Origin: Xestospongia bergquistia | Taxonomy: Eukaryota > Porifera > Demospongiae > Haplosclerida > Petrosiidae | NCBI GenBank assembly: GCA_963965975.1 | Contig: OZ014411.1 | Location: 17,202,446 to 17,266,445 of the forward strand | Direction of reading: 5' to 3' | Length of the DNA stretch: 64,000 nucleotides | Shown here: piece after piece, positions 16,740 through 38,590 of the stretch | How the letters are laid out: the number at the start of each line of letters is the position of its first letter | Position numbering within the stretch: the stretch's first letter is position 1 | The notes under the pieces: generated by a model | Told to the model about the DNA's origin: nothing | Databases searched by the model: none | What the model saw: the letters and a program-made list of their open reading frames with translations, nothing else | Position numbers and translations under genes: made by a program

Positions 16740-17992
16740 GCATAATGCAATTAAGGAAGGTTACGTGCAACAATCATCAACAATAAATGTGCAAGTTGCG
16801 CTAAAGCTTTTTTTATGTCAGAACCACCAGATATGACACATTTTAAACCTTTGTTAAAGGTCGATGATGAGGAACCAAAGTATGAAGCAATGAAGGAAGA
16901 GAGTCCTTACAATGATCAAGGTTTCATGTTACATAAAGATCTTGAACCTGCTAATCCTGAAAAGATCATTGCAGCTATTGAAACGATGCTTAGCAAAAGG
17001 ATATCATTTAAACAGAAGGTTGCAATGGATGCATTTGTGTATGAGACAATTGACAAGATGATTGGAGAGAAGGTTACGAAAAAGGTCAAGGTGTTACTGT
17101 AACTCACATGCCTGACAATATTTATGGTTATTTTTGTCCAGATCAAACCATGCATGTTTTGGTTCACTATACGTACACAGTTATGTATTTGCCAAACATG
17201 GATGTACCTTACGATCAAAGGTCATTACCAGAGGATGCTTCTGAACTTTTGGGTGCTTTAGGTATATCTTCTCCATTATCCTATAATTTGAAAATCTATT
17301 GGACAACAACATATTGGAATGATTTAGCTTTGGATGATAATGATTTCTTTGAATATGATGATTTGGAAGAGGATGACAATGGATACCCTGATCCTAAGGA
17401 AATGAAAGAAAACGACTTACCTGAATATAATATCTTGACGGATGAAAGTGATCAACCTGTGAACTTTGTTAAAAGTGATGTTTACACTTCTGCGTCTAGG
17501 TTTCTTCAAGCCCGTCAAATACATCGTAAGGGAGTTTATGCTGTTGTTCATCCAAAGTACAAGTATCCAATGAAACATAACGTAGTACATCATATAGCTG
17601 TTGATCCTGGACATAGAGAAGATGAGAAGCAATTAAAAGCTTTTGCAATGCATAAAGATCCATACTTTAGGAGGGAAAATTTATGTAAAGTGTATGCAAG
17701 AAGTAGAGGAGATAAATGTAGGTTGGGTTTACATCGTAATTCTCAGACTGTTACTGCATTAGGAGTTTCATTCAATGATATTGTTGGAGGCATTTTTAGC
17801 ACAGCCAGAGAAATAGGTGCTACTGTACAGCAATTTCTACCCTTTGCACAACTTGCAGGAGGACTTCTTGCTGCTACTCCAAATATGTTTCAGAAAAGTA
17901 AATCTGAGTATTACAAATCCCTAGTTCCTAAATATAATGGTATTTTATATCCTTACAGTTTTCTGAGTGGACATAAATTAAGCAACAAGTAA
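16740..17992 (+). CDS. Element A part: candidate structural protein, first block
   Basis: A stretch coding for acidic and Tyr-rich sequence (FFEYDDLEEDD, NVVHHIAVDPGHREDEKQLK), then a Gly/Ala-rich amphipathic segment (VSFNDIVGGIFSTAREIGA, FLPFAQLAGGLLAATPNMF) that resembles membrane-active or minor-capsid helices. It is directly followed by two further structural-type parts. Identity as capsid is inference from composition and position. A counterpart lies on the minus strand of element B (32918-34174). Confidence 0.4.
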
Positions 17993-18590
17993 ATGTTGGG
18001 TCATCATGAAAATGAAACTTTGACAAAGATGAATTTACCATTGATGGGGTCTAAGCCTCAAGTTGGAAGGGCGCTTGATGGTTCTATGGTTCAAGTCACG
18101 GGTTTTGCTATGCAATTGGAACTTACTCCTAGTGCGTCTATAATGGAAGTTATTGATCCTGTTGGTGATCAAGCAAAGCCTTTGTATGGAGTTAAAACTT
18201 ACGTACATAACGAAGGGGGGGAAACTAATAATGATGCATATTTAGGTTTGACATTACCTATGGCTATTAAAAATGAATCTTCAACAAAATTAGATGACAT
18301 AGCGTTACCAACTGTACCATCTTCTAAACCTTACAGTAGTACTGATCCTACAATTTTAGCAGGTGGTGGTTTGCATTCAAGAGTGAAAGTGCTTTTAATA
18401 CAGGTAACGGAGCCACAAACAACAGAGATTTATTTGTAGCAGGCATTTTAGCTGAATCAAGAAATGAAAATGGTGATGTACGTACGGGTTACAAAATTCT
18501 GATACTGATGGAAGAACTGATCATGGATGGCAACAGAACAAAACACCAGAAAGAACAGCAGCCTTAGAGATTATTGGTGCTGCTAGACTT
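17993..18590 (+). CDS. Element A part: candidate structural protein, second block
   Basis: Begins MLGHHENETLTKMNLPLMG and has alternating polar/hydrophobic strands (SMVQVTGFAMQLELTPSAS) that look beta-rich. It sits without a gap between the preceding and following structural parts, as in a set of capsid or precursor proteins. No family is recognised. Fossil, broken. Confidence 0.35.
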
Positions 18591-18599
18591 CAAGAAGAA

Positions 18600-19589
18600 A
18601 TGCCCAAAAAATTGGCTAATGAACTCTGGTTAAATACGGTTGTTCAAGCAAGACTTTTCAAACAAATCAAAGATTCTCAGAAAGCTCAACCGGGTACTTT
18701 GTACTTTCATAATGATGTCGCTCAAGTTGTACCAATTAATATCAACAATTTTGATTGGTATACGCATGTTGATTTTGAAGTCTATGCAAATGATTGTAAA
18801 CAAGTTGGATCAGGTTGTACTTTCAAGGTTCGTGTTAACGTAGATGTATCGATTGATAATGTACGTTTACCTTTTAAACTTGATCTCTTAGAAAATGTTA
18901 GAATAGTAGATGGTATTACTTTTGTTGAAGGTAATGGCCATCTCATTGTTGGTCAACTTCTCTTGCAAGGTTTGTGGTCTTCAACAGATTTTACACCACC
19001 ATATGATATTAAAGCAGTTGATACAGGTCATCAATGTCTATGGGGTGCAACGACAAGAAATGACAATGACAAAAAATTTTATGTAATGATTAAGCCTCTT
19101 TATAATTCAGCTGCTACAAGTTACACTTGGAAATTGACTTTTAGCACTTTGGACAAAACATATAATATTCAATCTAATGCACTTGGTATTGCTGTATGGA
19201 TTCCTGATAAGATTAAACCTGATCAAAGGTACATTTATACTCACCTCAATTATGGCAACGGTAATCTAAACCAATTTTTGTTTATAAAATGTTTTGGTTG
19301 GTATAATGGACAAGTTGCTTCTATGCAACATCACAACATCATACGTTTGCCATATATTTTACAAGCATCGCCTGGTTTTACGGTTCATGTTATCGAAGAA
19401 GGAGAAGATACTTACAATCTCACTCCTAATATTGGAAATTTATGGAGTGGTGTTACTACTTATGGAACTGTTAATTTAACAAGTTATGGTAATTACACTT
19501 TCAGCAGTGCTTCTTTATCTAACATAACAATTGGGGGAAGCTCTTATACATACTGTTATTACCCTAGTAATTTGTATAATTTTTATTGA
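18600..19589 (+). CDS. Element A part: beta-rich protein of 329 aa, capsid candidate
   Basis: Long open frame rich in Thr, Asn, Tyr and Val with a regular strand-like pattern (HVDFEVYANDCKQVGSGCTF, FKVRVNVDVSIDNVRLPFKL, YVMIKPLYNSAATSYTWKL) and a Ser/Thr/Tyr-rich tail. Size and pattern fit a jelly-roll-like coat protein, but I cannot name a family, and it could be a fibre or spike. The outer part of it is present in inverted form in element B, where the two arms meet. Confidence 0.4.
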   Translation: MPKKLANELWLNTVVQARLFKQIKDSQKAQPGTLYFHNDVAQVVPININNFDWYTHVDFEVYANDCKQVGSGCTFKVRVNVDVSIDNVRLPFKLDLLENVRIVDGITFVEGNGHLIVGQLLLQGLWSSTDFTPPYDIKAVDTGHQCLWGATTRNDNDKKFYVMIKPLYNSAATSYTWKLTFSTLDKTYNIQSNALGIAVWIPDKIKPDQRYIYTHLNYGNGNLNQFLFIKCFGWYNGQVASMQHHNIIRLPYILQASPGFTVHVIEEGEDTYNLTPNIGNLWSGVTTYGTVNLTSYGNYTFSSASLSNITIGGSSYTYCYYPSNLYNFY

Positions 19590-19659
19590 AATTTTGTTTA
19601 TGTGCATAATTAGAAATTAATTTTTTTTGCATTAATTAGAATAAATGCAGTTATTGCTC

Positions 19660-20480
19660 AAGCTCAAGTGTGGCGTGATAAGAGACTAGGTTATCAAATA
19701 TACCAGAGACCTCAAGGGGATCCAAGTTTGTGAAGAGTCTACACTTTGGAGTGTCTTGTGGTTGATTTGACAAATCGATACAATTATCCTCAGTATTCTT
19801 ATCCTGTTGGTAAGCCAGTAAGGCAGAGGGGACAAGCACGTGGTACGTCAGATTCTGAACATGATCTCTATCAGACAAACTTCTCTCTTACATGGAAGGC
19901 TGTTTGTCATCCTTTGAACACGACTGTTCTGTTGAGATCCTGTCGTGTTACTTATGAAGGATTGAGGGGATGTAAGGGTAACTCTTTTCACATGATAAGT
20001 GGATATATAAACGGATTGGATCATGCTCATCTTCTTGGCTTGGAAGCTGAAATAACACAAGCATACGAAAATGCTGGTCGACATTGTTGGATGAAAAGTT
20101 TATGGAAACCTGAAGAATTGAGAACTGCAGACGATTGGAAATATCAAAACAGAGTTCTTGCTAGTCATTGACAAGGACTTCGTCTAGTTGGAAACCCAGC
20201 TTCAGTTGGTTCTAGTATTGGTGTTAGAGAGGCTGGGGATATCCTCCCACTTCTCCAGCTTTAACAGGAGCTGCTTATTCACCTAGAGGGGGAATTGTAA
20301 CACCTCCCGCTTTGCCGTCTCCTACTGGTGAGGATTTATTTAGAGCACAATATGAGAACTTGTTGAGAACTACAATGGGCTCTGAATATGTTTCTCCTTC
20401 TCCTTAGGTGCTGGACCTTCTGGTTATGTGCCTGCCCCATACTCACCTATCGCACATCACACAAGAACACAAGTAACTTA
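19660..20480 (+). CDS. Element A part: unknown rightward protein
   Basis: The clearest open frame is 19746-20171 (141 codons), with NRYNYPQYSYPVGKPVRQRG near its start and HMISGYINGLDHAHLLGLEA near its end. A Pro/Ser-rich stretch follows. No domain is recognised. It is present in element A only, since element B ends inside the previous gene. Confidence 0.35.
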
Positions 20481-20545
20481 CCCTAGGGTGAGTAAGACAT
20501 GTACATAATTTATTAATTATTATTTCTTATTAGTAGCCTTTTAGT

Positions 20546-21079
20546 TTGTTTCAAGTACCTTGCCTTTCGCACCCACCTGCATACATTAATCCGCCTCCAC
20601 CTGCACCTTTTCCTCCTCTACCTCCTCCTATAGTAGAAGAACCTGAAGATGTACCTGCACTTACCTTAGATATACCTCCCCCTCCACAAGAGACTTTACC
20701 ATTAATGCACGTACCTGTAATTCCGCCAGTAGATAGACCAGACGTACCAGTAAATAGACCCGTAAGTACTATTAATGTAGGAGAAATAGAGCCGACTCAA
20801 TTTGTTCATCTCTCGGGATTAGGATGATTGCAGTATAATCCCGAACTGCAAATGCTTATGCCTCCTCCACCTACACCTCCTTTGCCTCCACCACCTGGAG
20901 CGTCTGATGAAGAAGTTATGATATACGAAAATACTTTATCTCCCCCGACTGCACAGATTGTTACTACGGCAGGTTTGCAAGAAGTTCGTTTGGAACCTCC
21001 ATCTCCAATTGACGAAATGGGTGATGATGAGATAACGGCGATGGAAGTTCAACCTGAATATTGGAGATGGAAAGTTTAA
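20546..21079 (+). CDS. Element A part: proline-rich protein
   Basis: Two adjoining open frames (20546-20827, 20828-21079) code for strongly Pro-rich sequence (PPPPAPFPPLPPPIVEEPED, MPPPPTPPLPPPPGASDEE). Such tracts are typical of extended linkers or of docking sites for SH3/WW domains. A probable short intron-like segment (GT..AG) precedes it. Function unknown. Confidence 0.4.
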
Positions 21080-21157
21080 GATTGAAGTGAAAAAGGAACA
21101 GAAATTCACAGTCAAGGGAGCTTAAAGGAAGAGAATGCACTAGGAGAGACAAGACTC

Positions 21158-21886
21158 ATGCAAGCTACTGAGGAAGAAATGTTGTCTCAGACTCCTTCCG
21201 AATTTAATTTGTTGACTGATGTACAACCCACAGGAATACCGAGGGAAGAGATACCTCCCGAAGAGTTTCTTGAACAAATACCTACAAGAGTACAGGATTT
21301 GGTGATTTGTATCCATACAGGCCAGAAATGTCTAGAGAGCAGTTGCAAAGAGAAGCGGAAGCTTTGGCTGAAGGCCATAGGATATACGAACAACCTAGTG
21401 AAACAGAGAGCATTCACCCATAAGGGTTGTTGACTTGACAAAGGAACCTACCCTGAGGTTGTCCGAACGTGAGAGAGTTGAAAGGGAAATCAAACAAGAA
21501 CAAGAAGCCGAACAAATCAGGCTGGCTCATGAACAGATACTGTCGTAAGTAGATCCTAAAGAGCTTATTTATGAAGAGCAGACGCAAAAGCTTTAGAGTA
21601 TGTTTAAGACAATCCACCACTAATCGATCCTGTACAAAACGAAGCGGAAACCTTTTTGCAGGAAATAACTGAAGTTTTAGCTGAAAATGAACCGCATGTG
21701 AAGCAAGAAGTCCAAGAAGCTGAGGAGGCTGTTTTAGGCATTAAACAAGTAGGAATCGAAGGCACCAGCAAAGAGAAGATAATTGAAGAACAAACGCCTT
21801 CAGTTGTAAGTCCACCTGTACCAGGTGGTGTTTACATACATTTTGACAAATTGACGCCTACGATGCTGAAACTCATAGATATATAG
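21158..21886 (+). CDS. Element A part: acidic Glu-rich protein
   Basis: Open frames at 21158-21433 and 21656-21886 are rich in Glu, Gln and Pro (REEIPPEEFLEQIP, QEVQEAEEAVLGIKQ). They continue the low-complexity character of the Pro-rich part upstream and of the coiled-coil part downstream, so all may derive from one long rod-like protein. Fossil, broken. Confidence 0.35.
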
Positions 21887-21913
21887 GACACTATTGGTAA
21901 TGGATATGCAAAA

Positions 21914-22456
21914 TTGTCTGATTTAGAGACTGATGTCAACAAAGCCACAGAGTATCGCAAAAACAAACGAAACTTTTTGACTACTTCCAATCAGTTAATG
22001 GAAATATTGCAATTGAGAAAGAGACTTGGAATCCAAATTGATGATGAACAGCTCCAGGCACAGATAGCTAGTTACAGAAAGAGAGCTAGGCTAGTTCAAA
22101 GCAAGTTGGCAGCAGCTTTGTCTCAGGAGTCTGCGCAAGGGATACCTGACAATCCCAGTCAGGCTAATATCAAATCCAAGTACGCAGTTATAGAAAAGAA
22201 AAAGAAGAAAGGCGTTAGATCTGACAAACAAAAACGTGAAGTAGTCTATGAAGAGTTGCAAGTGCAGAAGGCTATGGATACTGGGATGCCAAGTGAACTT
22301 ACGGATGCTATAATGAAAAAAATTAAAATAGAAATGTTACCTGATGAGTTGAGGCCAGCAGAGTCTTCTCATCCTCTACCTGTTAAAAAAGAAATAAAGT
22401 CTGAACCTGAAGATGTAATATTTGAGTCTAGTTTGAGATCTTTGTATGATCAATAA
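21914..22456 (+). CDS. Element A part: last rightward gene, Lys/Glu-rich coiled coil
   Basis: 180 codons with heptad-like spacing (LMEILQLRKRLGIQIDDEQL, YRKRARLVQSKLAAALSQE) and a basic patch (KKKKKGVRSDKQKRE) that could act as a nuclear signal. It ends 54 bp before the AATAAA at 22510, so it is the last gene of the rightward transcripts. Confidence 0.4.
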   Translation: MSDLETDVNKATEYRKNKRNFLTTSNQLMEILQLRKRLGIQIDDEQLQAQIASYRKRARLVQSKLAAALSQESAQGIPDNPSQANIKSKYAVIEKKKKKGVRSDKQKREVVYEELQVQKAMDTGMPSELTDAIMKKIKIEMLPDELRPAESSHPLPVKKEIKSEPEDVIFESSLRSLYDQ

Positions 22457-22584
22457 TTTTGTTTAATTTTTATTTTTGAAAAAAAAGAAATTTGGTGAAT
22501 TACAGAAATAATAAAGTAAATATAGCATATAGTTAAAGCAGCATTTAATAATAGCCTATAGTTAAAGCAGAATACATTACTGTT
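22457..22584. terminator. Opposed poly(A) signals where the two gene blocks meet
   Basis: AATAAA on the plus strand at 22510-22515 and on the minus strand at 22474-22469. The two transcript blocks would therefore end within about 50 bp of each other and slightly overlap, as in ambisense densoviruses. Confidence 0.55.
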
Positions 22585-23360
22585 AAGTCAAAAAGGTATT
22601 AGACCAATTTCTTGTTCTAAATCAAAAAAACCTGGGGAAACATCTAATCTAAGAGAGAGTATATCGTTTTCTGGCTTATAGGCGATGAGTTGTCCAAATT
22701 CGTTGATGTAATGTGTTGTTGTTACGTTGTGTTCGGGTGCTGTGACAGTGTTACAACCGCTGTTTTTTATTAGGTTGATAATCACTTTCGGAGGAATTTG
22801 AATGTTGTTCGGGTTGCTGAAGGTGACTTCGAATCTATAAAAATGTAATATAAGTTAGTAATAATAATAATAATGTGATTACTTGTATGTATATATTCTA
22901 TTCATAAATGCTTTGAAAGATGTTTGGTCTCCATCACAAAGTTTATTTATGAGGACGTCAGGCGAATAGTTAGTTGTTATTATTATAGGCACAGATGATA
23001 CTTTTATAGGTCTGGAGTATTTGACGTCCACAACTTCTTCGTCTCCTTTGAAGAGCTTTTTGAGAGTACTTTGAAATGAAATTGATAAAGTTTGTGGATC
23101 TAGTTCTTCGAAATGTATCAATCTAGAGTGTGCAAAATTATAAAATTTGAAGTTGTTCGATCTTACAAGATGCAGATGGTTCGACAAGTCCAACAATGTG
23201 ATGGTGAATAGTGCTCATGCATTTCTTACTTGCGTGTTTGCAATTTACTGACATCAATTGTTGTATGCAGTACCTCTTTGTAGTGACGTTAACTAGTTTG
23301 TCAAAAAGCTTGTAATAGGGGAGACTGTCTTTGCTTCTAAAATGAAGAGGAAACATCTTT
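22585..23360 (-). CDS. Element A part: SF3-type helicase, NS1-like C-terminal region
   Basis: Minus-strand coding shows, in order, a Walker-A-like loop (about 23182-23170), a Walker-B-like strand (NFAHSRLIHFEELD), and a motif-C-like strand ending in Thr-Asn (VSSVPIIITTNYSPD) with the usual basic follow-on (FKAFMNRIYTYK). This order and spacing is that of superfamily 3 helicases such as parvovirus NS1, which unwind viral DNA during replication. No nicking (HUH) domain was seen in front of it. A short GT..AG segment suggests splicing. It is missing from element B. Fossil. Confidence 0.55.
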
Positions 23361-23463
23361 TGGGTAATATTTTAGGTCTGAGTGATGCATTGTGACGTTC
23401 TTTTTCTGTGAGTGTGCGTGATTCAATGTTCTTGTGTATGATTGGAATGTTTTTTACAACATT

Positions 23464-26400
23464 TCATGGCGCTGGCGCCGTTTCAGGGGTGGCCTGTTCT
23501 TTGTTCTTCATTGTTTTTGGTTCATGTGTTGGAGGAAGCATTTGCGATGGAGGACTCATTTCTCTCCCCACTGTGAACGATTCTTGGTGGAAGAGGCTCA
23601 GGTGAGAGTGACTGCTCAATGACTGTAGGGGAATCATTTCTACTGTCTCGTCCTTTTTTTCGTCCTCTGTTTCCGAAAGGGGATTGCCTGGATGAGGGCC
23701 GGGACGTCTCTTTTGGCATGTCGTAGGCGAGTATGTCTCCCTGGAAAATGTTATGCTTGGCAGATGGCTTTGTTCCTTTATATAGAGATGAGACTCTTCA
23801 TATTGCTTTTTTGAGTGATCTTGTGAGCTTTTGTCCTCATCTTCTTCTCCGTCGTGGACTTCTGCTTCTATCGTCATCTCATGATGATGAGGATAGGTCG
23901 TGCCATTGTCTGTAGTCATTCCTCCCATCATATCTTGAATTTGGGCTGCTTCCTCTGATGTCATCTGCATATGTTGGTTCTGGGGAAGGAGTGGGGGAGG
24001 ATTTGTCCCCATCCTCGAATATAGGTCCTTGTTCCACCAATTGACGTCTTGTTGATGTTCGTAATCTGCGTCCAGTTGAGCTGTGTGTTTGTTGACTTGT
24101 TCTACAAGGCGTTCCTGACCTGCTGTGACTGCTCTCATATCTTTTTCCATGGGTCTTAGAAACTCTTTGCTCAATTTCCTTTCTTCCACTTTTTTTATTT
24201 CCACTACTGTATCCCCAAAACTGTTTGTGATCTCTCTTGTAATCTCTGGAGCCATAATGTTTTTGAGGTACGTCATCATCTCCTTCAGTACTAACATCCT
24301 CTCATCTTCCTTGGCTAGATCTTCTTGTTTTCCTCCTTGACTTTGGCTAGTTCCGACTTGAGATGTTTCTCCTCCACCATTATACCTCTCACTGTTGTCA
24401 GTGTCTTCTCCTCTTTGTTCATCAAGTCCATGTATTCCCTCTTGAGATGATCCATCTTTTCGTACATTTTCTCCATCGACTTTGCCAGGGATTGCCTCAT
24501 CGTTCGTTCTGCTTCCAGTTCCTCCTCCAACACTGTCACTTTCCCAGATTCCTTCTTCAGATTCACTGCCAGTTATATTTCATTCCTCTCTAGCATGTGA
24601 AGTCATTCCATTATTCCTGTCAGAGTATTTTCTGGATTCTCTGCTTTCATCAGAATTTTGATTTGATCCTCCATCACTGCTATTTTCTCCTTGAGAACGT
24701 CTTGTATTTCCACTATCTTGTCCATCACTTCCTCCTGCTTTTGTTCTTTTTTTCGGAGGAGAACCTGTTGCTCCATGAAATTGGGGAATTGTGTATTCTT
24801 CAATGTTTCCACAGTGTCTTGCAGCTGGTTCACTTTGTCCCTCAAAATAGACATCCTTTCCATGAGAGATCCGTTCACCATTGGATCGTCCGAGTAATCT
24901 CCCACCTCCTTTATGAGCATCGACACGAGACAATCTAACGATATAATTCTTTTGGCCTGGCTTTCTACATTTGACTGTGTAGAGTTGGCCTGCTGGAGAG
25001 CTCGTTTCACATTGTCGCTTATCTCCTGGTACTCTGGATCCCAGTTGTCCCCGCACTCTTCCATCTGAAAGTCTTCGTTCCTCTTTATAAGGACTTTCAT
25101 TTCCGTGCATGATTCCTCCAAAGTACTTATCTCTGACAGCTGGGTTTCTTTCGTCTCCTCTAATTTGCTCAGTCGAACTTGAATTGATGCAAAGTAAGTT
25201 TCCACACTTTTCACATCTTTGGCCAATTTTAATTGTTCTTGGTGAAACCTCGAATTGCTCTTTAAAATGTTGTCGATCCTCTTCTCTAACATTCTCACTG
25301 AAGTCAGAATGTCAGAAACTAGTCTTTCGAGACTCATCACTTAATCCCACTCGTCCATAAACTTCTTGTTCATGTTTGTCAGTTTTCTTAATTTTCTTCC
25401 ATTCCCATTTGAAAACCTTCCACTGACACCTGTGAAAAGGAACCAGCTAAAGTGTTAGTATAACTAATCCCTCTACCTTCAGAGAGGATATTGCCACAAA
25501 GTTCTTCTCTATCGAAGTCGTCACTTCGCTTATCTGTAAGTCCAGAGTCCCTACATTTTCCTGTAATAACAGATAAGATATAATTAAAATAAGATATAAT
25601 TAAATACACATTATACCTCATCCATTATTACCTCCACTGTCTTCAGGTTCTTGGCAAGTTCTTGGCAGGTTCTTGGCAAGTTCGTCCACAGTTGTCGATA
25701 GTTGTGGGAGAGATGGTACAAGAGGAATCACAGGAATATCCTTCTGATGACCACTTTGGAATTTCTCTAGGTTCGCTTGAATGTCTTTGACATTTGTATC
25801 CAAATCTTCCAACATTGTGTGATGATGTTCCTTGCAATCTTTTACACCTTTGTGGACTCGGGGGAGCAGATCTCGAACGGCTTGGTTTACTGAGCCAACA
25901 ACTCCACTCAGAGAGTTCAGACTCTTGAAAAGGAGTGAAACGGCTGCACTTTATCCCACCAAGTTTCACAGAATGTTCCGATGCAGTTTGGTAATGAACT
26001 TTCTGCACACCGTCTAAGCCATTCTTCAGCGACTTCAACTCTCTCTCTAATTCATTGGATCTCTTTGGAAATTCATCTTTGTGCAAACATGTCGCAGAGT
26101 ACTTCCTCGTCTGATAAAGAGTCTCGTCCATTTTCTTGTTCATTTGGGTTTCCAACTTCACTATCTGCAATTCGATCTGCGTAAGTTTGTCCTTGTTGTG
26201 CTTCACTACGACAATTGCTTCTGACACACGTCCATTGGTCTCCTCCAAATGGTCCTGAACTTTCTTGATCCATTCTTCGCAGATGACTACATCTCCACCA
26301 ATACTCTTCATCTCCTTGTACACGTCTCCCAGGCATACTTTCACACCTGCAACCCATATGCATACATCCACCACAATACGGTCGTCTCCTGGGCCATGTG

Positions 26401-26479
26401 GCAAACCTCCCTTTGTTAAGAGTTGCATGATTTGACTCTCCATTTGACTTCTCCATGCTGAATAGGTCAACTTGTGCAA
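23464..26479 (-). CDS. Element A part: long coiled-coil protein block
   Basis: Minus-strand open frames at 26479-25643, 25340-24603, 24566-24315 and 24297-23464 all show dense heptads (KRIDNILKSNSRFHQEQLKL, VSVLEEELEAERTMRQSLA-like runs) over about 3 kb. The last part turns Ser/Pro/His-rich. So long a coiled coil in a virus-like setting suggests a fibre, tail or scaffold protein, but it could also be a tether to host structures. No named family is recognised. Fossil, broken. Confidence 0.45.
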
Positions 26480-26682
26480 TTGTAACTCTTCAGTGACAGC
26501 GTTTATTGTTAACTAAACAAAACAGTTATTTTTCAAAAATAAATCATGATCACATAAGATACAAACATCACTAGTGAAAGTTACAAAAAATTTATGTCAT
26601 ACACTACAAGGTTTAGCTAAATAAAGTTGGTTCATAATGAACTAAACGAACATGTGTTCATAATGAACTAAACGAATGAGGT

Positions 26683-27252
26683 CTACTCATTTTCCACATC
26701 TTCTTCTTTGTACAAGCTTGCATAGGATTGCAAATCAACTTCATTTTGTATGGATTTGACTTCACGACATTCTTTACAAGGTTGTTTGTCATCATTGGTA
26801 TAATATACATGACAGGAAATACATCTATGATAAAGCTTTGTGTTTTTGGTAGTACATTCATGAGGCTTAAATCCAGCATTAATTAAACGACATTTGTTTG
26901 CACTACAAATTGATGAAGGGACTTCACAAAAAATGCGACCCTTACATACTAAACAATGTGTAGTGTACTTGTCACCATTTAGCCAAGTAAACAAACCTTG
27001 TTTGTTACGTAAAGCTTCAATCATTGTTTGTTGGGCACAATCATATTCTGCATTAATTTCTTGTAATGCTTGTGATATTGTAACATATTGTGGATCGTAA
27101 TGTACTCTAACAAAACCACTTACAAGTAAGTCCTCCTTCGTAATAGTTGAGGCAGAAGAGTCTTGATCGTGCTTGCAATCTGCTGATTTGTTCGTACTTG
27201 TTCCAGACGAATCGTTTACGATTGGGACACCAGTCTTTGAGTACTTTTGCAA
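26683..27252 (-). CDS. Element A part: Cys-rich zinc-binding protein, 189 aa
   Basis: An N-terminal polar region is followed by a Cys/His cluster: CLVCKGRIFC, CSANKC, HECTTKN, YHRCISCHVYYTND and CKEC, enough for two or three zinc sites (ribbon or treble-clef style). It lies near the right terminal promoter, in the mirror position of the Cys/His-rich 180 aa protein at the left end. A transcription or nucleic-acid-binding role is inference. Confidence 0.45.
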   Translation of the reverse strand: MQKYSKTGVPIVNDSSGTSTNKSADCKHDQDSSASTITKEDLLVSGFVRVHYDPQYVTISQALQEINAEYDCAQQTMIEALRNKQGLFTWLNGDKYTTHCLVCKGRIFCEVPSSICSANKCRLINAGFKPHECTTKNTKLYHRCISCHVYYTNDDKQPCKECREVKSIQNEVDLQSYASLYKEEDVENE

Positions 27253-27457
27253 AGAAACAGACCGTAGTGTTACCTTGGCCTTCTATAATGTATAAATATG
27301 AATATTATTAAATTATAAATTTACGAACCTGCTTGTCCTGCCAAGTAGTCAAGGGTAGTTTCTCCTCTTTCCCAAGACAGGGCTTCTTCAAAAGTAAAGG
27401 ACAATCCTCTGAACTGACTTTTGTTGTCGGTGAGGAACTGCACAAGGAACGTTTTTG

Positions 27458-27664
27458 TTAACCTGGTCGAGAGGAGATGGGTTCTTGTATCGAGGGATTC
27501 AAACTGAAAACAAGTGACCCGTCCATGGATTCAACGACAGGACGAATACCTGCTGGTGATTGATATTGCTTTGAACTTTCTGTAGACTCTTGACTGGCAG
27601 ACAAAGACTTCAACAAAGGACTTGGCGGAAGTTCTTGAGAGTCGCAAGGAGTCTGACTTAACAT
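27458..27664 (-). CDS. Element A part: first leftward frame, Ser/Gln/Pro-rich
   Basis: 68 codons, Ser/Pro-rich, directly behind the right-end promoter (minus-strand TATATAA at 27796-27790). It could be the first exon of the leftward gene block. No domain. Confidence 0.3.
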   Translation of the reverse strand: MLSQTPCDSQELPPSPLLKSLSASQESTESSKQYQSPAGIRPVVESMDGSLVFSLNPSIQEPISSRPG

Positions 27665-27789
27665 TGCAAGAAGTAAAATGAGAGTCTTAAAATTCTTGAC
27701 AATATTCTTGAGAACCTTTTGAGTCTTCTTTCCTTGAGTCCACTTCGAAGAGAAACTGTACTAACTGAAATTGCACCAAAACTGTACAC

Positions 27790-27796
27790 TTATATA
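27790..27796 (-). promoter_or_regulatory. TATA-like box for leftward genes
   Basis: TATATAA on the minus strand, 126 bp before the ATG at 27664, between the right terminal repeat and the leftward genes. Confidence 0.4.
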
Positions 27797-28058
27797 CTAT
27801 TTGGAGTATGTGGGTGGAATGGTAAGACCCTTCCAATTAAATCCATTATCCATATATAAAGTATGGTTGTGAATGTATGGAGTTTTGAATATAAGGATAG
27901 TTTAGTATAGGCTTTAGTACAATAAAGGTATACTTTTGTATAATACACTCATGAATATTTAATAGTACAGCTTATATTATAACTGTACAAACTATACTTT
28001 TATAAAACTGTACTTTAATACAATATACATAATAATTACATATTAATTATATGTAATC

Positions 28059-28203
28059 TGTACTTATTAGGTTTTATTTAGAGTACACTTATGAAATAAA
28101 CTGTACTAACTGTACTAGTGTATACCCAGGTCAATCCCCTGTCATAAGTACACTTTATAAAGGACTAGTACAGTTAGTTCACTTTATAGTAATTGTACCT
28201 CCC
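28059..28203 (-). repeat. Right terminal inverted repeat of element A
   Basis: Reverse complement of 14386-14526, with very few differences. It ends at the centre of the first palindrome (CCCGGG at 28201-28206). Confidence 0.85.
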
Positions 28204-28440
28204 GGGAGGTACAATTACTATAAAGTGAACTAACTGTACTAGTCCTTTATAAAGTGTACTAGTACAGTTAGTTCACTTTATAGTAATTGTACCTCCCGGG
28301 AGGTACAATTACTATAAAGTGAACTAACTGTACTAGTCCTTTATAAAGTGTACTAGTACAGTTAGTTCACTTTATAGTAATTGTACCTCACGGGAGGTAC
28401 AATTACTATAAAGTGAACTAACTGTACTAGTCCTTTATAA
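28150..28440. repeat. Palindromic joint between elements A and B
   Basis: Three palindrome centres spaced 94 bp apart (28201-28206 CCCGGG, 28295-28300 CCCGGG, 28389-28394 CACGGG), each flanked by GTAATTGTACCT and AGGTACAATTAC arms. Between centres lies another inverted repeat (AACTAACTGTACTAG / CTAGTACAGTTAGTT) around a TCCTTTATAAAGTGTA loop. The joint equals two element ends fused head to head, with the outer part repeated. Confidence 0.9.
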
Positions 28441-31400
28441 AGTGTACTTATGACAGAGGGGATTGACCTGGGTATACACTAGTACAGTTAGTACAGTTTA
28501 TTTCATAAGTGTACTCTAAATGAAACCTAATAAGTACATATTCAATAATACAATTTTATAGTAAACTGTAAAACTGTAATACAGTTTAAATTGTACTAAT
28601 GTAATTAAAAATGTATACATTTACTAGTGTGTGCCCACACATGTATGTGTACACATGTAGACGTAAATATGGAGTCTATATATGGATAAATATTTACACA
28701 TTTATGATCTTGACACCATATATGGATAAATATTTACATATTTATAATTTAGACACCATATATGGAAGTAGTAGTAATTAGTACAATTTTTTATAAATAC
28801 TGTATTACAGTTTGTTCACTTTTTTTCTAAATTGTATAATTTGAATTTGCATAATTCATTAGTACAGTTTACTTTCAGTACAGTTTACACTTTAAATGTA
28901 AACTGTATTATTTGGGTGTGGTATACATAAAATATGTCTACATTTTATCTATAAAAGGCCAATGTTTAGTTCACATATTCAGTCTTTTGAATCTATATTT
29001 CTTTCTTCCTTTAGGTTAGATAATATGGCTACTTCAGGGACTCAAGACAAGTCAAAGAATAATCCTCCATCAAGGAAACGTTGCAAGTATGAAGTCAAAC
29101 TTTGTGGCGTTGGTGGAGGACCAGATATGCCTGAAGAAATGGAAATGGCTCAAACTTCAATGATTGAAACGATTTCATGTCCAAAGAAAATTGCCAAATG
29201 GTATGAATGGTGGTGTGGTGTTGACAAATGGTTTTGTAAACAAGCTGTGAGGCATCCTGACCATATTGAAAATAGAGAAGAGAGTTGTACGTGGGAGTAT
29301 GCCTTAGAACAACAAAGTCAAAATATGTTTTTTATTAATGATGCTGTTACTTTCGCCATGTTTAGGGATGATATTAGTTTGAAAAAGCAATATTTGGGTA
29401 TGTACAGATCACGATTTCTTAGACGTAATTTAATTCATTATTTCTGGTGTTGCGGAAATAACGAAATGGTCAAGTTGTTATGTTCAGCTCGTTTATCTCC
29501 ATTAGATGTATATGAAGAAGCTTTTAAATTTGTTCCTAATTGTGCAGTTTAGTGAACTTATATTTCAGTTTAATACTGTATTTTCAAAAGTACTGTATAT
29601 TTTGAAATTGTAAAGTGTACTTAAGTACGCGTGTTTATTATTATAAAATTATAAAATAAGTGTTTTGCGAGAAATTAGTCATTAGTTACTATGAGTAGTA
29701 ACGCTCCTTTGGGCAAGAACGCAAGAGAGGTTGTTGAAAACGGTCAAGTCAGGGTTATTGTACTCACAAAAATGGCAAAGAGAGACAATTCATGAGAGAT
29801 ACATACACTAAAATGTTCAACAATCTCCGCGCGGGCAAGGCATCTTCGGGAGGGAGTAGCCAAGTCTCTTCCACAGTACCGAAGTCAAGTAGTCATCCCA
29901 AGGCGTCTAGTTGTAACTATGATGGAGGAGGGAGCAATAGAGAGAGGGAACATCAAAGCTTTAGAGCAGATCCTCCTCAACGATCCGGAGAGATTGATAA
30001 TTCTGTGGTTCGTACTCTCGAAGCTCTCACAAAGAAGGTATCTCAGCTTTCAGAATCCAAGAGCACAAGCAAAAATAAGGGAAATGCAAAATCTAGTTCT
30101 AAGTCTGGAGGGGGACACAGAAGTAGAACTACCAGAAGTAGAAGTCCGATCAGCAGAAAACCCAACCCAAAAGATATACCTCACTCCAACAGAGATACAG
30201 ACGTCATTGAAAACATACAAATGTATAAAGGATGAAGATCCTGTGCATACTCTTATTAACACTGCACCTGCACTTTTAGCAGATTTGGGTGTAATGGTTT
30301 CTGACAGAACTATTGAAACTTATATTCACGTTGTTGATGAAGAAGCTCGTGATCCAGCATATTGTATTGGCAATGATAAAGATGGCAATCCTCATTTGTA
30401 TCAAATCCACACTGACAAGTTTTTGATGGGTGAATTTAAGTTTCCAATAGACCATCCGGAAATAGAATTTACTACTGATTTTTGTCTCATTCCATACATA
30501 CAAGAAATGTCTGTACTTTTGGAGTAGAATTTAGAGTACGAAGTTAACCTTATCAATATGCATAATGCAATTAAGGAAGGTTACGTGCAACAATCATCAA
30601 CAATAACTGTGCAAGTTGCGGCCAAGGCTTTTTTTATGTCAGAACCACCAGATATGACACATTTTAAACCTTTGTTAAAGGTCGATGATGAGGAACCAAA
30701 GTATGAAGCAATGAAGGAAGAGAGTCCTTACAATGATCAAGGTTTCATGTTACATAAAGATCTTGAACCTGCTAATCCTGAAAAGATCATTGCAACTATT
30801 GAAACGATGCTTAGCAAAAGGATAGGTTTCATGTTACATAAAGATCTCGAACCTGCTAATCCTGAAAAGATCATTGCAACTATTGAAACGATGCTTAGCA
30901 AAAGGATAGGTTTCATGTTACATAAAGATCTCGAACCTGCTAATCCTGAAAAGATCCTTGCAACTATTGAAACAATGCTTAGCAAAAGGATATCATTTAA
31001 ACATTTTACAGTTGCAATGGATGCATTTGTGTATGAGACAATTGAACAAGATGATTGGAGAGAAGGTTACGAGAAAGGTCAAGGTGTTACTGTAACTCAC
31101 ATGCCTGACAATATTTATGGTTAATTTTGTCCAGATCAAACCATGCATGTTTTGGTTCACTATATGTACACAGTTATGTATTTGCCAAACATGGATGTAC
31201 CTTACGATCAAAGGTCATTACCAGAGGATGCTTCAGAAATTTTGGGTGCTTTAGGTATATCTTCTCCATTATCCTATAATTTGAAAATCTATTGGACACC
31301 AACATATTAGAATGATTTAGCTTTGGATAATAACTATTTCTTTGAATATTATGATTTGGAAGAGGATGACGATGGAGAGTTAATATACCCTGATCCTAAG

Positions 31401-31689
31401 GAAATGAAAGAAAACAACTTACCTGAATATAATATCTTGACGGATGAAAGTGATCAACCTGTGAACTTTGTTAAAAGTGATGTTTACACTTCTGCGTCTA
31501 GGTTTCTTCAAGCCCGTCAAATACATCGTAAGGGAGTTTATGCTGTTGTTCATCCAAAGTACAAGTATCCAATGAAACATAACGTAGTACATCATATAGC
31601 TGTTGATCCTGGACATAGAGAAGATGAGAAGCAATTAAAAGCTTTTGCAATGCATAAAGATCCATACTTTAGGAGGGAAAATTTATGTA
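28391..31689 (+). other. Element B plus arm: left end plus first gene parts
   Basis: Contains, in A's order, the terminal repeat, two CArG boxes, a TATA box (28950-28958), the Cys/His-rich first gene (open frame 29025-29552, or 28962 if an upstream ATG is used), the basic protein (about 29690-30230), the acidic protein and the first structural block (from about 30558). It differs from A and from the minus arm at scattered sites, so it is not a simple mirror image of either. Confidence 0.8.
30741..30992 (+). repeat. Three tandem copies of an 84 bp in-frame unit
   Basis: An 84 bp unit coding for 28 residues (GFMLHKDLEPANPEK then TIETMLSKRI) is present three times in a row in the plus arm of B, and once in A and in the minus arm of B. 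The copies are nearly identical, so the expansion is recent. Confidence 0.9.
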
Positions 31690-31691
31690 TC

Positions 31692-34600
31692 TCTTATCAG
31701 GAATCCATACAGCAATACCAAGTGCATTAGGTTGAATATTATATGTTTTGTCCAAAGTGCTAAAAGTCAATTTCCAAGTGTAACTTGTAGCAGCTGAATC
31801 ATAAGGAATTTTAATCATCACATAAAATTTTTTGTCATTGTCATTTCTTGTCGTTGCACCCCATAGACATTGATGACCTGTATCAACTGCTTTAATATCA
31901 TACAGTGGTGTAAAATCTGTTGAAGACCACAAACCTTGCAAGAGAAGTTGACCAGAATGAGATGGCCATTACCTTCAACAAAAGTAATATCATCTACTAT
32001 TCTAACATTTTCTAAGAGATCAAGTTTAAAAGGTAAACGTACATCAATTAATACATCTACGTTAACACGAACTTTGAAAGTACAACCTGATCCAACTTGT
32101 TTACAATCATTTGCATGGACTTCAAAATCAACATGCGTATACCAATCAAAATTGTTGATATTAATTGGTACAACTTGAGCAACATAATTATGAAAGTACA
32201 AAGTACCCGGTTGAGCTTTCTGAGAATCTTTGATTTGTTTGAAAAGTCTTGTTTGAACAACCGTATTTAACCAGAGTTCATTAGCCAATTTTTTGGGCAT
32301 TTCTTCTTGAAGTCTAGCAGCACCAATAATCTCTAAGGCTGCTGTTCTTTCTGGTGTTTTGTTCTGTTGCCATCCATGATCAGTTCTTCCATCAGTATCA
32401 GAATTTTGTAACCCGTACGTACATCACCATTTTCATTTCTTGATTCAGCTAAAATGCCTGCTACAAATAAATCTCTGTTGTTTGTGGCTCCGTTACCTGT
32501 ATTAAAAGCACTTTCACTCTTGAATGCAAAACCACCACCTGCTAAAATTGTAGGATCAGTACTACTGTAAGGTTTAGAAGATGGTACAGTTGGTAACGTT
32601 ATGTCATCTAATTTTGTTGAAGATTCATTTTGTAATAGTATGACTAGCCATAGGTAATGTCAAACCTAAATATGCATCATTATTAGTTTCCCCCCCTTCG
32701 TTACGTACGTAAGTGTAACTCCATACAAAGGCTTTGCTTGATCACCAACAGGATCAATAACTTCCATTATAGACGCACTAGGAGTAAGTTCCGATTGCAT
32801 AGCAAAACCCGTGACTTGAACCATAGAACCATCAAGCGCCCTTCCAACTTGAGGCTTAGACCCCATCAATGGTAAATTCATCTTTGTCAAAGTTTCATTT
32901 TCATGATGACCCAACATTTACTTGTTGCTTAATTTATGTCCACTCAGAAAACTGTAAGGATATAAAATACCATTATATTTAGGAACTAGGGATTTGTAAT
33001 ACTCAGATTTACTTTTCAGAAACATATTTGGAGTAGCAGCAAGAAGTCCTCCTGCAAGTTGTGCAAAGGGTAGAAATTGCTGTACAGTAGCACCTATTTC
33101 TCTGGCTGTGCTAAAAATGCCTCCAACAATATTGTTGAATGAAACTCCTAATGCAGTAACAGTCTGAGAATTACGATGTAAACCCAACCTACATTTATCT
33201 CCTCTACTTCTTGCATACACTTTACATAAATTTTCCCTCCTAAAGTATGGATCTTTATGCATTGCAAAAGCTTTTAATTGCTTCTCATCTTCTCTATGTC
33301 CAGGATCAACAGCTATATGATGTACTACGTTATGTTTCATTGGATACTTGTACTTTGGATGAACAACAGCATAAACTCCCTTACGATGTATTTGACGGGC
33401 TTGAAGAAACCTAGACGCAGAAGTGTAAACATCACTTTTAACAAAGTTCACAGGTTGATCACTTTCATCCGTCAAGATATTATATTCAGGTAAGTCGTTT
33501 TCTTTCATTTCCTTAGGATCAGGGTATCCATTGTCATCCTCTTCCAAATCATCATATTCAAAGAAATCGTTATCATCCAAAGCTAAATCATTCCAATATG
33601 TTGTTGTCCAATAGATTTTCAAATTATAGGATAATGGAGAAGATATACCTAAAGCACCCAAAAGTTCAGAAGTATCCTCTGGTAATGACCTTTGATCGTA
33701 AGGTACATCCATGTTTGGCAAATACATAACTGTGTACGTATAGTGAACCAAAACATGCATGGTTTGATCTGGACAAAAATAACCATAAATATTGTCAGGC
33801 ATGTGAGTTACAGTAACACCTTGACCTTTTTCGTAACCTTCTCTCCAATCATCTTGTTCAATTGTCTCATACACAAATGCATTCATTCCAACCTTCTGTT
33901 TAAATGATATCCTTTTGCTAAGCATCATTTCAATAGTTGCAATGATCTTTTCAGGATTAGCAGGTTCGAGATCTTTATGTAACATGAAACCATGATCATT
34001 GTAAGGACTCTCTTCCTTCATTGCTTCATACTTTGGTTCCTCATCATCGACCTTTAACAAAGGTTTAAAATGTGTCATATCTGGTGGTTCTGACATAAAA
34101 AAAGCCTTGGCCGCAACTTGCACAGTTATTGTTGATGATTGTTGCACGTAACCTTCCTTAATTGCATTATGCATATTGATAAGGTTAACTTCGTACTCTA
34201 AATTCTACTCCAAAAGTACAGACATTTCTTGTATATACGGAATGAGACAAAAATCAGTAGTAAATTCTATTTCCGGATGGTCTATTGGAAACTTAAATTC
34301 ACCCATCAAAAACTTGTCAGTGTGGATTTGATACAAATGAGGATTGCCATCTTTATCATTGCCAATACGATATGCTGGATCACGAGCTTCTTCATCAACA
34401 ATGTGAAGATAAGTTTCAATAGTTCTGTCAGAAACCATTACACCCAAATCTGCTAAAAGTGCAGGTGCAGTGTTAATAAGAGCATGCACAGGATCTTCAT
34501 CCTTTATAAGCTCCATAGGATCTTCATCATCTGGATCTTCTTTAAATCCATTCAGAACTACCTTAGAATGTTTATTAGCTGCAAGGAGATTTTTATGAAG

Positions 34601-36058
34601 AAATATTCCTTGTTCACCAGGAGGCATGTCATTAGATGGCCTCAAATTGTAAGTATCCTCGTTCACTTGGACAATCTCCGGTGCCATGTCCTCAGGTTCA
34701 AAGTCTTCCGTTTGTATGTTTTCAATGACGTCTGTATCTCTGTTGGAGTGAGGTATATCTTCTGGGTTGGGTTTTCCGCTGATTGGACTTCTACTTCTGG
34801 CAGTTCTACTTCCTTGTCCCCCGCCAGACTTAGAACTAGATTTTGCATTTCCCTTATTTTTGCTTGTGCTGTTGGATTCTGAAAGCTGAGATACCTTCTT
34901 TGTGAGAGCTTTGAGAGCACAAACCACAGAATTATCAATCTCTCTGGATCGTTGAGGAGGATCTGCTCTAAAGCTTTGATGTTCCCTCTCTCTATTGCTC
35001 CCTCCTCCATTATAGTTACATCTAGACGCTAATCGTGATCCTTACATACCCAAATATTGCTTTTTCAAACTAATATCATCACTAAACATGGCGAAAGTAA
35101 CAGCATCATTAATAAAAAACATATTTTGACCTGTAAATTCAATCTGTTGTTCTAAGGCGTACTCCCACGTACAACTCTCTTCTCTATTTTCAATATGGTC
35201 AGGATGCCTCACAGCTTGTTTACAAAACCATTTGTCAACACCACACCACCATTCATACCATTTGGCAATTTTCTTTGGACATGAAATCGTTTCAATCATT
35301 GAAGTTTGAGCCATTTCCATTTCTTCAGGCATATCTGGTCCTCCACCAACGCCACAAAGTTTGACTTCATACTTGCAACGTTTCCTTGATGGAGGATTAT
35401 TCTTTGACTTGTCTTGAGTCCCTGAAGTAGCCATATTATCTAACCTGAAGGAAGAAATATAGATTCAAAAGACTGAATATGTAAACTAAACATTGGCCTT
35501 TTATAGATAAAATGTAGACATACTTTATGTGTACCACACCCAAATAATACAGTTTACATTTAAAGTGTAAACTGTACTGAAAGTAAACTGTACTAATGAA
35601 TTATGCAAATTTAAATTATACAATTTAGAAAAAAAGTGAACAAACTGTAATACAGTATTTATAAAAAATTGTACTAATTACTACTATTTCCATATATGGT
35701 GTCTAAATTATAAATATGTAATATTTATACATATATGGTGTCAAGATTATAAATATGTAAATATTTATCCATATATAGACTCCATATTTATGTCTACATG
35801 TGTACACATACATGTGTGGGCACACACTAGTAAATGTATACATTTTTAATTACATTAGTACAATTTAAACTGTATTACAGTTTTACAGTTTACTATAAAA
35901 TTGTATTATTGAATATGTACTTATTAGGTTTCATTTAGAGTACACTTATGAAATAAACTGTACTAACTCTACTAGTGTATACCAAGGTCAATCCCCTGTC
36001 ATAAGTACACTTTATAAAGGACTAGTACAGTTAGTTCACTTTATAGTAATTGTACCTC
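31692..36058 (-). other. Element B minus arm: left end plus structural gene parts, inverted
   Basis: Reading leftward from 36058: terminal repeat, CArG-like box (35690-35699), TATA (35505-35497), the Cys/His-rich first gene (from 35434), the basic protein, the acidic protein, the first structural block (34174-32918), the second (from 32917) and the outer part of the beta-rich capsid candidate (from 32300). It stops inside that last gene, where it meets the plus arm. Confidence 0.8.
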
Positions 36059-36230
36059 CCGGGAGGTACAATTACTATATAGTGAACTAACTGTACTAGT
36101 ACACTTTATAAAGGACTAATACAGTTAGTTCACTTTATAGTAATTGTACCTCCCGGGAGGTACAATTACTATAAAGTGAACTAACTGTACTAGTACACTT
36201 TATAAAGGACTAGTACAGTTAGTTGACCTG
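36000..36230. repeat. Palindromic joint after element B
   Basis: Two CCCGGG-centred palindromes at 36058-36063 and 36152-36157, again 94 bp apart and built from the same arms as the joint at 28150-28440. Confidence 0.9.
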
Positions 36231-36378
36231 GGTATACACTAGTACAGTTAGTACAGTTTATTTCATAAGTGTACTCTAAATGAAACCTAATAAGTACATA
36301 TTCAATAATACAATTTTATAGTAAACTGTAAAACTGTAATACAGTTTAAATTGTACTAATGTAATTAAAAATGTATAC
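36158..36378 (+). repeat. Third terminal-repeat fragment, joined to the hAT 3' half
   Basis: Rightward-facing end of a further element copy, with part of the inner repeat rearranged near 36200-36226. It stops at GTATAC (36373-36378), the same base at which the fragment in duplication copy 1 stops (7017). hAT coding sequence (TRWLAH) follows directly. Confidence 0.85.
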
Positions 36379-37334
36379 ACGCTGGCTGGCACATAAGGGG
36401 TGAAGGTAAGCTATGCTGCAATTGTGACTGCTTTTGACAATATCCATGAACATACACACGAGCCAGAGGCACTGGGACTGAGCAAAGCTCTTAGTAAGAA
36501 GGAAACAACTGCAACTATTTTCTTACTTGACTACACTCTTCCACAGGTAGCCAAACTTAACAAAACACTCCAGACAGAGCACCTGGACTTGTCAATCGTA
36601 TCCAGCTTTGTCAATGCAACCCTTCATACATCGGAAAATGCAATTACACCTGCAGCAAACTGGGTTCTTGAACTTTGGGAAGAATGTGTGAATCTAGAAA
36701 GAGCAACTGTTTCAGAAATATCTCACACAGACATTCCAGGAAACCATAGCTAAGCCATTTATTGCCAATCTGAAGGATAACATTTCAAGCCGTTTCGCTT
36801 CTTCTGGAGATGTTTTGTCAGCACTAAGTATATTCGATCTAATGAAAGTACCAGTGGATCCTCATGATTTGTCCCATTATAGAGAAGACTCAATTAGCAT
36901 ACTTCTTGCCCATTATGGCATAGACAGACCTGCAGAGACATTGCAGGGTGAGGAAACAGTAAAAGAAGCAATGATCTCCCCTGACACAACTACAGAGTGG
37001 AAAACCTTCCATCAGTTTATGGGTAAGCAACCTAAAGAGAACACGAAGTTGCAGTTGAAGGAATTAGCAACAAATGAAATGTTAAAATATATGTTTCCAA
37101 ACATGAACACACTTGCAACCATCAGTCTGTCCATTCCCATTGCTACTGCCTCTGTAGAGAGAAGTTTCTCTCAGATGAAGTTAATAAAAACTCGGTCTAC
37201 GCAACCGCTTAAGTGACACCAGCCTTTCACATCTTATGAAAATAGCCATTGAATTTCATGACACTTTGCTAGATAGTGACTTTGAAGACATTGTAGATAT
37301 GTGGAATAGAAAGAGTAGAAGAATAGCTGTTTAG
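36376..37334 (+). pseudogene. hAT transposase, C-terminal part
   Basis: Resumes with TRWLAHKG (36376-36399) and SYAAIVTAFDNIHEHTHEP, then continues in frames 36400-36753 and 36740-37216 to the conserved hAT dimerisation region (LATISLSIPIATASVERSFSQMKLIKT) and ends LRNRLSDTSLSHLMKIAIEF..NRKSRRIAV with TAG at 37332-37334. Three slips are visible: after the LAHKG codons, around 36740 and near 37195. By comparison with the family, only some 15-20 residues are missing between ..KEV at 14390 and TRWLAH here, so the virus-like insertion cost the target about 50 bp. Confidence 0.85.
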
Positions 37335-37515
37335 GTTTAAAAATGTACATTCTCCTTGTGTTGAACCTAAGGTTATCTTATGTATATTCCATTATTCCTT
37401 GTGTTGAGTTTCAGTTCTGTATTCATTACATCCAATTACCCCTTGAAAAAAAAAAGGCAAACCTAATTTCCAAGGGGGGGCAAATGCCCCCCCTGCCCCA
37501 CTAAATGAAACCCTG

Positions 37516-38590
37516 ATTTTTGACAAGTTGCTGTTAGCACCCAATGTTGCAAATCTTCAACAAATTTCTTATCATTCATAACCAGTTGATTTCTCATCCT
37601 TTCTTGTTACTTTTAAGTTTTGTAACAACCATTACAATATTAGATAAATATTTTTATGCCTGTAGTAAAGGCTCAGCTATAAAAAGAAATGTGGAGCGCT
37701 TCTCATACATACTATACGTTCATACTTTCAGCAGCTACCACTCCCACTTTACTCCAGCAAGCAGGTGAATGTACTAGTATTGAAGATATGAATTACAGCA
37801 TGGAGTATATTGTAGATATGATTGAGAATGACTGGGAAAGAGCAGGAGAAGTAATTTGCTAGTATAGTGATGATGATTTCGAGTGTGGAATAAATGAAGA
37901 AATTGCTGAGGCCAGATATGAAATAAACTGTGACTGTAATTTTTGTATTATGATTTTCTTCAACAATAAAATATAAAATATTGAATGAATAGAATGACAA
38001 AGAGCATGTGCTTGGAATTTTCTTCATACTTTTGAACAGTTATGTGCATGAAACATAAATGTGTCACTACATATTATCCTACTGAAAAAATAAAATTATC
38101 TTTATAAAGAGTTGAGGATTCTGAACATGATCAGGAGTTCATAGTGATTGGTGTGAAGATAAGCATGAGAGAGATGAACAAACAGAGAATGGTGCAGAAT
38201 ATATGGACCTAGACGAAAATGTGAATGATGAACACAACGATGAAGATTGACGATGAAAACAACAAGGAGGAAAGTGGTGATGAAGATGGTGATAATAATG
38301 GTGATGAGGATGAAGACAATAATGATGACAATTTCACAGTACACGAGTGCACTAACCGATGTGAACCACTGTTTCCTTTATCCACACTGTTACTGGATAT
38401 CTTCCATCTTTCATTACAGATTAACCTCTGTTTTGTATTAATATATGCATTGTAATGTATTATTCATTCTTACTGTTATTAGTTTGTGTATGCACATGTG
38501 TGGTAAGGACCACATGTCAATAGTGTGTTGTCTTACTTACTCTGAGTTTGTAACTGTCAGTATAAGATCATTTTAAGTTGAACTCACTGT
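37516..38590. other. No confident gene; acidic low-complexity frames
   Basis: Contains short frames coding for Asp/Glu/Asn-rich repeats (38225-38455), which come from GATGAN simple repeats. The sequence around 37542 resembles the piggyBac-like end at 5117, and acidic codons at about 37780-37940 could be the decayed N-terminus of such a transposase. Neither is provable here. Confidence 0.3.

What the first reader, a model, noticed from the sequence alone, without database searches (positions are those of the whole stretch)
28391..36058. Snap-back derivative: two inverted left ends, right half missing
Element B repeats the left end of A in both directions and lacks the helicase and all right-hand genes. 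Known: viruses with hairpin ends throw off defective snap-back genomes of exactly this shape during replication. Finding one fixed in a host genome next to a longer form would record the replication mode of the element.
Basis: partly seen in the sequence, partly recalled or inferred. Interest (0 to 1): 0.9.

Follow-up and report, generated by a model that had tools for sequence, protein, structure and literature searches.

The report
Fossil snap-back virus genome
A eukaryotic chromosome carries, in a single insertion, a full-length copy of an unfamiliar 14-kb virus-like element with palindromic ends, joined to a defective mirror-image copy of its left end, a shape known from faulty replication of small DNA viruses but here preserved in an inherited genome.

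Summary
B (28392-36060) is the left 3.30 kb of element A, a 2-nt filler, then 4.83 kb of the same left end inverted: a 3.3-kb stem with a 1.53-kb loop. It lacks the rest of A, including the helicase. A, B and a 223-nt left-end stub form one 22-kb insertion (14384-36379) in a DUF4371-type transposon copy. Two of three paralogs compared run straight through the site; joints show 5-nt microhomologies, roughly 40-50 bp of target lost, no target-site duplication. The three left-arm copies differ pairwise by 1.8-2.3%, with near-equal private changes (17/29/24, p=0.21) and 15 of 59 coding changes synonymous, the neutral expectation. So they were alike when inserted; this argues against a later host inversion or a misassembly. 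Of nine diverged relatives read, four show head-to-tail joints and two (one event) an end turnaround. B is best read as an asymmetric snap-back genome, as in AAV. An internal deletion of a tail-to-tail dimer gives the same shape and is not excluded. The element (SF3 helicase, about 14 kb, palindromic ends) fitted none of the families tested. Host unidentified; no reads examined.

The parts
14384..28297 (+). Element A, full-length form of about 13.8-13.9 kb; left ORFs on +, helicase and right ORFs on -; left end cut within 3 nt of the palindrome centre
28050..28547 (.). Right:left joint of A and B: terminal repeat on both sides of three overlapping 114-nt palindromes of 94-nt period
28392..31689 (+). 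B, left arm (= A 14384-17687)
31690..31691 (.). 2-nt filler at the centre joint, no clear microhomology
31692..33222 (-). B, single-copy loop part of the inverted arm (= A 19212 to about 17688)
33223..36060 (-). B, inverted stem arm (= A about 17687 to 14384, 491 bp deleted)
36004..36227 (.). Left:left joint: two palindromes, then a truncated third fused to the stub
36157..36379 (+). Left-end stub, ends at the equivalent of A 14606; host DNA follows
28950..28958 (+). TATAAAAGG box of the left arm, same as A 14937
35497..35505 (-). TATAAAAGG box of the inverted arm, facing the first
13200..14391 (+). Host DUF4371-type transposon copy, left of the insertion (stretch compared)
36375..37521 (+). 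Same transposon copy, right of the insertion (stretch matched)
22588..23371 (-). Broken SF3 helicase of A (absent from B)
6795..7017 (+). Left-end stub in the tandem host unit, identical to A 14384-14606

Best explanation
B is an asymmetric snap-back (self-complementary) genome of the left end of a hairpin-ended DNA virus. During replication a left-end duplex was joined to a second left-end duplex in opposite orientation (broken ends joined, or a template jump), giving a molecule with the left terminus at both ends, a 3.3-kb stem and a 1.5-kb loop. It sat in a concatemer with a full-length genome (A right end : B left end; B right end : another left end). Host end joining then put the whole 22-kb array into a transposon copy in the germ line, and all copies decayed neutrally. 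Shown: anatomy, single insertion, arms alike at insertion, neutral decay. Inferred: that the centre joint formed in viral DNA before insertion, that genome ends are hairpins, and the joining route.
For: Arm geometry and palindromic joints on both sides of B. Empty site: of three transposon paralogs compared, L021 and L023 match both flanks in one piece, L022 only the left flank; junction microhomologies GAGGT and ATACA. Arm divergence A-L 1.87%, A-R 1.81%, L-R 2.29%; private substitutions away from gaps A 17, L 29, R 24 (p=0.21); 15 of 59 coding changes synonymous against 25.1% expected, 3 stops. 2-nt filler at the centre. A diverged relative has an end turnaround: 439-nt inverted repeat (86%) around a 108-nt spacer at the right end. 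AAV gives snap-backs with unequal arms (PMC8235507), joints with the D sequence on both sides, terminal-repeat runs, copy-back forms and mixed head-to-tail/alternating concatemers (PMC8195378, PMC11575299; passages).
Against: The centre joint cannot be dated apart from the arms, so a later internal deletion of a longer array fits too. The arm test rests on about 70 changes, so a modest difference in age between arms is not excluded. Head-to-tail joints are the commoner kind among the relatives read (4 of 9 loci). No copy in view ends in host DNA at an intact hairpin end. Only one left-left copy was found (copies that lost the first gene would be missed). No reads were available.
Confidence: 0.62

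Rival explanations
1. Internal deletion of a tail-to-tail dimer (left-right:right-left), in the virus or after insertion, removed both right halves and the unstable right:right palindrome, leaving two unequal left ends face to face.
For: Unequal arms; the neighbouring copy A is of full length; the centre joint looks like plain end joining; private deletions of 491 bp (inverted arm) and 149 bp (left arm) show that this locus loses DNA.
Against: Needs a dimer plus a deletion of about 20 kb spanning its joint; no neighbouring opposed pair of right ends appears among the 9 matches of the right-end protein search (the list is a lower bound).
Confidence: 0.22
2. Circular DNA virus with a palindromic origin: 'left' and 'right' ends are two sides of one intergenic region, and B arose by an inversion at the palindrome.
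For: In 4 of 9 relatives read, right and left sides are contiguous in head-to-tail order; the helicase's best Pfam match is papillomavirus E1.
Against: Three window junctions (A:host, A:B, B:stub) fall at or beside the palindrome, and turnarounds occur at the left end (window) and at the right end (C12/C7), as expected of hairpin ends.
Confidence: 0.12
3. Later host inversion or inverted duplication of A, or a misassembly.
For: The flank does hold tandem units without a difference in the window.
Against: Arms are about equally distant from each other and from A, with private indels; no host DNA at either joint.
Confidence: 0.04

Closest known systems
AAV asymmetric snap-back genomes (PMC8235507, passages; PMC11575299, passages)
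   Same: One terminus at both ends, unequal complementary arms, loop in the middle, rest of genome missing; found beside full-length forms
   Different: Here inherited in a eukaryotic genome, from a 14-kb element that is not AAV; seen as one integrated copy, not as packaged DNA
Minute virus of mice snap-back defective genomes (recalled, not read)
   Same: Hairpin terminus kept, foldback of one end
   Different: Different virus; not a genomic fossil
Tapeworm endogenous densoviruses (PMC6880638, passages)
   Same: Head-to-tail viral concatemers with terminal repeats in a host genome; SF3 helicase
   Different: Densovirus-sized genomes (size recalled); the term head-to-head does not occur in its main text
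AAV2 mixed concatemers with HSV-1 (PMC8195378, passages)
   Same: Head-to-tail and inverted units in one molecule; repeats of the terminal repeat
   Different: Replication intermediates in cells, not germline

Membership tests
Snap-back defective genome | Same terminus at both ends in inverted order, remainder missing | tested here: met
Snap-back defective genome | Arose in viral replication, not in the host | tested here: inconclusive
   arms date to insertion; centre joint not separately datable
Snap-back defective genome | Packaged or replicated as such | not testable with these tools
   needs virus particles
Parvoviridae | Palindromic terminal repeats | tested here: met
   152-nt inverted end repeat, 97%, and 114-nt palindromes; seen at joints, not as free ends
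Parvoviridae | Genome of about 4-6 kb (recalled) | tested here: not met
   A is 13.8-13.9 kb
Parvoviridae | NS1 with SF3 helicase | tested here: met
   relative L026: Parvo_NS1 8.6e-9, but PPV_E1_C 4.7e-16 is better
Parvoviridae | NS1 HUH nickase domain | tested here: inconclusive
   no Pfam match in the ORFs scanned; an HHH motif upstream of the helicase seen by eye only
Parvoviridae | Parvovirus capsid protein | tested here: not met
   no Pfam match in the left ORFs scanned of A or relatives; a very diverged capsid would be missed
Papillomaviridae | E1 helicase plus L1/L2 capsid, circular 8 kb (recalled) | tested here: not met
   helicase match only; no capsid match in the ORFs scanned
Bidnaviridae / Polinton-adintovirus | Protein-primed DNA polymerase B | tested here: not met
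   none in 21 ORF queries from A; a few short ORFs of A were not scanned
Polinton-adintovirus | Integrase-made target-site duplication | tested here: not met
   microhomology joints and roughly 40-50 bp of target lost

The most novel reading that the evidence does not exclude
An undescribed lineage of 14-kb hairpin-ended eukaryotic DNA viruses left a snap-back genome in the germ line which now works as a long hairpin-RNA locus: two identical TATA boxes face each other across a 3.3-kb stem of left-hand genes, so transcripts would be double-stranded and could silence incoming relatives.
Probability: 0.1. Interest if true: 0.85.

Novelty: new variant of a known kind. Interest (0 to 1): 0.6.

Why it matters
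Snap-back genomes are known as by-products of AAV and of AAV vectors in cells. An inherited one, next to its full-length parent in the same insertion, would show that such forms arose in a natural germ-line infection and would give indirect evidence of the replication mode of a virus known here only from a host genome. It also offers a test of whether such inverted viral copies feed small-RNA defence.

Tried and rejected
Flip/flop evidence: the inner 16-nt block lies in opposite orientations at the two window joints, but in the same orientation relative to the left end, and the relatives' spacer has one orientation in the three right:left joints whose letters I read (C13, C12 3751k, C7 5459k); I do not claim flip/flop. 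First arm count gave 65 left-arm changes, 31 of them in one 200-nt bin where the sequence ran past the arm; recounted on trimmed arms, where sites within 3 nt of gaps were dropped (A 19, L 33, R 26 became 17, 29, 24). By arm, coding changes were A 6 syn/7 nonsyn (p=0.10), L 6/20, R 3/17, stops counted as nonsyn. Exogenous relatives: IMG/VR scans with 4 queries gave one hit, L031, whose ORF I judge by eye to be a phage-type ATPase and not a relative. One bacterial/archaeal genome scan gave none. PDB searches with window ORFs gave only chance-level matches, among them a plant-virus coat protein at E=0.29. Structure predictions of two left ORFs failed (mean pLDDT 30.8 and 32.8) and were not used. 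PHROGs gave nothing for 6 proteins, NCBIfam one chance-level match among 7. Print searches; no report of an endogenous snap-back virus genome among the rows listed (searches listed 15 of 34, 15 of 57, 10 of 15 and 10 of 484). A paper search for Rep-driven amplification of flanks returned none.

Full report
What is there. The window lies in a 146-Mb genome of 21 contigs, host not identified; DUF4371 (below Pfam's cut-off), reverse-transcriptase and NYN-domain ORFs suggest a eukaryote, and the name hAT for the DUF4371 transposon is recalled. Element A runs from 14384 to the palindromic joint at 28050-28547. Element B follows without host DNA: 28394-31689 repeats A 14384-17687; 31692-36058 repeats A 19212 to 14384 inverted, less 491 bp. 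The innermost complementary arms leave 1533 nt between them. After B come a second palindromic joint and a left-end stub to 36379, then host DNA.

One insertion. Three paralogs of the interrupted transposon were compared. Two match the left flank (to 14391) and the right flank (from 36375) in one uninterrupted piece: C13 at 97% and 92%, C9 at 85% and 88%. The third (C3) matched the left flank only. The joints share GAGGT and ATACA with the target, roughly 40-50 bp of the target are missing, depending on the paralog, and there is no target duplication. This looks like end joining, not transposition. A, B and the stub therefore entered together as one 22-kb array.

Age of the arms. On trimmed arms A-left differ by 58 of 3107 sites, A-right by 51 of 2812, left-right by 60 of 2624. 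Private changes away from gaps are A 17, left 29 and right 24 (one further site differs in all three), not different from equal (p=0.21). Of 59 coding changes 15 are synonymous; 25.1% is expected without selection (p=1.0); 3 are stops. The arms were thus alike at insertion and have decayed without visible selection since. A later inverted duplication of A in the host would leave two arms clearly closer to each other than to the third; that is not seen, though some 70 changes cannot exclude a small difference. The test dates the arms, not the centre joint.

Ends. Left and right ends of A share 152 nt as inverted repeat at 97%. The A:B joint holds three overlapping 114-nt palindromes of 94-nt period, the B:stub joint two and a truncated third; one such palindrome folds at -46.7 kcal/mol against a mean of -10.2 for 200 shuffles. 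A starts within 3 nt of the palindrome centre. B is bounded by palindromes on both sides, as a linear genome with two left ends would be.

Relatives. Searches find diverged relatives on C7, C9, C12 and C13. Gene order was read in 9 loci, not all of them fetched to their ends. Right side and left side are joined head-to-tail in four: C13, C7 (5459k), C12 (3751k) and C7 (5514k). In C12 (3965k) and C7 (4462k) the right end turns around: in C12 a 439-nt inverted repeat at 86% flanks a 108-nt spacer. Their outer flank is a repeat present several times on C12, so I count these two as one event. C12 (3954k) has at its other side a right-side piece joined to a left-side piece with the joint itself missing. 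C12 (3905k), C12 (4084k) and C9 show no end joint in the stretches fetched. The first-gene protein has 7 matches; only the window has an opposed pair close together. So one left-left copy with long arms was found in this genome.

What the virus is. The helicase of A is broken and weak in Pfam (DUF5906 0.0026, PPV_E1_C 0.013, Parvo_NS1 0.045). The C9 relative has a clear SF3 domain: PPV_E1_C 4.7e-16, Parvo_NS1 8.6e-9; papillomavirus E1 (1.7e-9) and an NS1 (2.2e-7) in the PDB. No capsid, polymerase or integrase family was recognised in the ORFs scanned. Genes on the left run rightward and those on the right run leftward. At 14 kb with palindromic ends it fits none of the families tested. I name it a hairpin-ended virus-like element with an E1/NS1-type helicase.

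How it works. The best reading is an asymmetric snap-back made during replication, caught in a concatemer and inserted by end joining. AAV offers each part: snap-backs with unequal arms (PMC8235507), terminal-repeat runs and mixed concatemers (PMC8195378), joints with D on both sides and copy-back forms (PMC11575299). For AAV vectors, end joining has been suggested as one contributor to snap-back breakpoints (PMC13422874, passages), in line with the 2-nt filler here. A tail-to-tail dimer with an internal deletion is the main rival. The head-to-tail joints speak against rolling hairpin alone: MVM gave no head-to-tail reads (PMC8195378), whereas AAV2 with HSV-1 and bocavirus do show such joints (the bocavirus paper PMC3087758 seen as abstract only). 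Circles or recombination may thus play a part.

A loose end. The stub beside the host (36379) and the stub in the 7589-bp tandem unit (7017) stop at the same viral base, A 14606, within the few bases that microhomology leaves open. The tandem copy carries a base that A has and the other four copies of this end compared lack, so the tandem duplication is later than the insertion. This base may be the physical end or nick site of the left hairpin; chance is not excluded.

Possible role. Both arms of B keep a TATAAAAGG box about 28 nt before TTCAGTC, facing inward. Transcripts could form long double-stranded RNA. No expression data were available.

Noticed in passing
window 1-7017 and 7590-14606; third copy from C1:17194287: Three tandem copies of a 7589-bp unit of host DNA, without a difference between the two in the window; the joints between units hold 223 nt of the viral left end. 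Recent amplification or an assembly matter.
   Followed up: partly
window 7017 and 36379 (A 14606): Two different junctions with host DNA fall at the same viral base (..ATGTATAC), a possible terminus or nick site.
   Followed up: partly
window 30740-30992: An 84-nt stretch is triplicated in B's left arm only.
   Followed up: no
window 40994-41343 and 42232-42581: 350-nt inverted repeat, 98% alike, 888 nt apart; may be another mobile element.
   Followed up: no
L024 7703-10000; L036: Relatives on C13 and C9 sit beside arrays of tandem satellite-like repeats.
   Followed up: no
C12:3966115-3966500 and copies: The flank of a relative's end turnaround occurs five times on C12 at 98-100%, so relatives there may have spread by segmental duplication.
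   Followed up: partly
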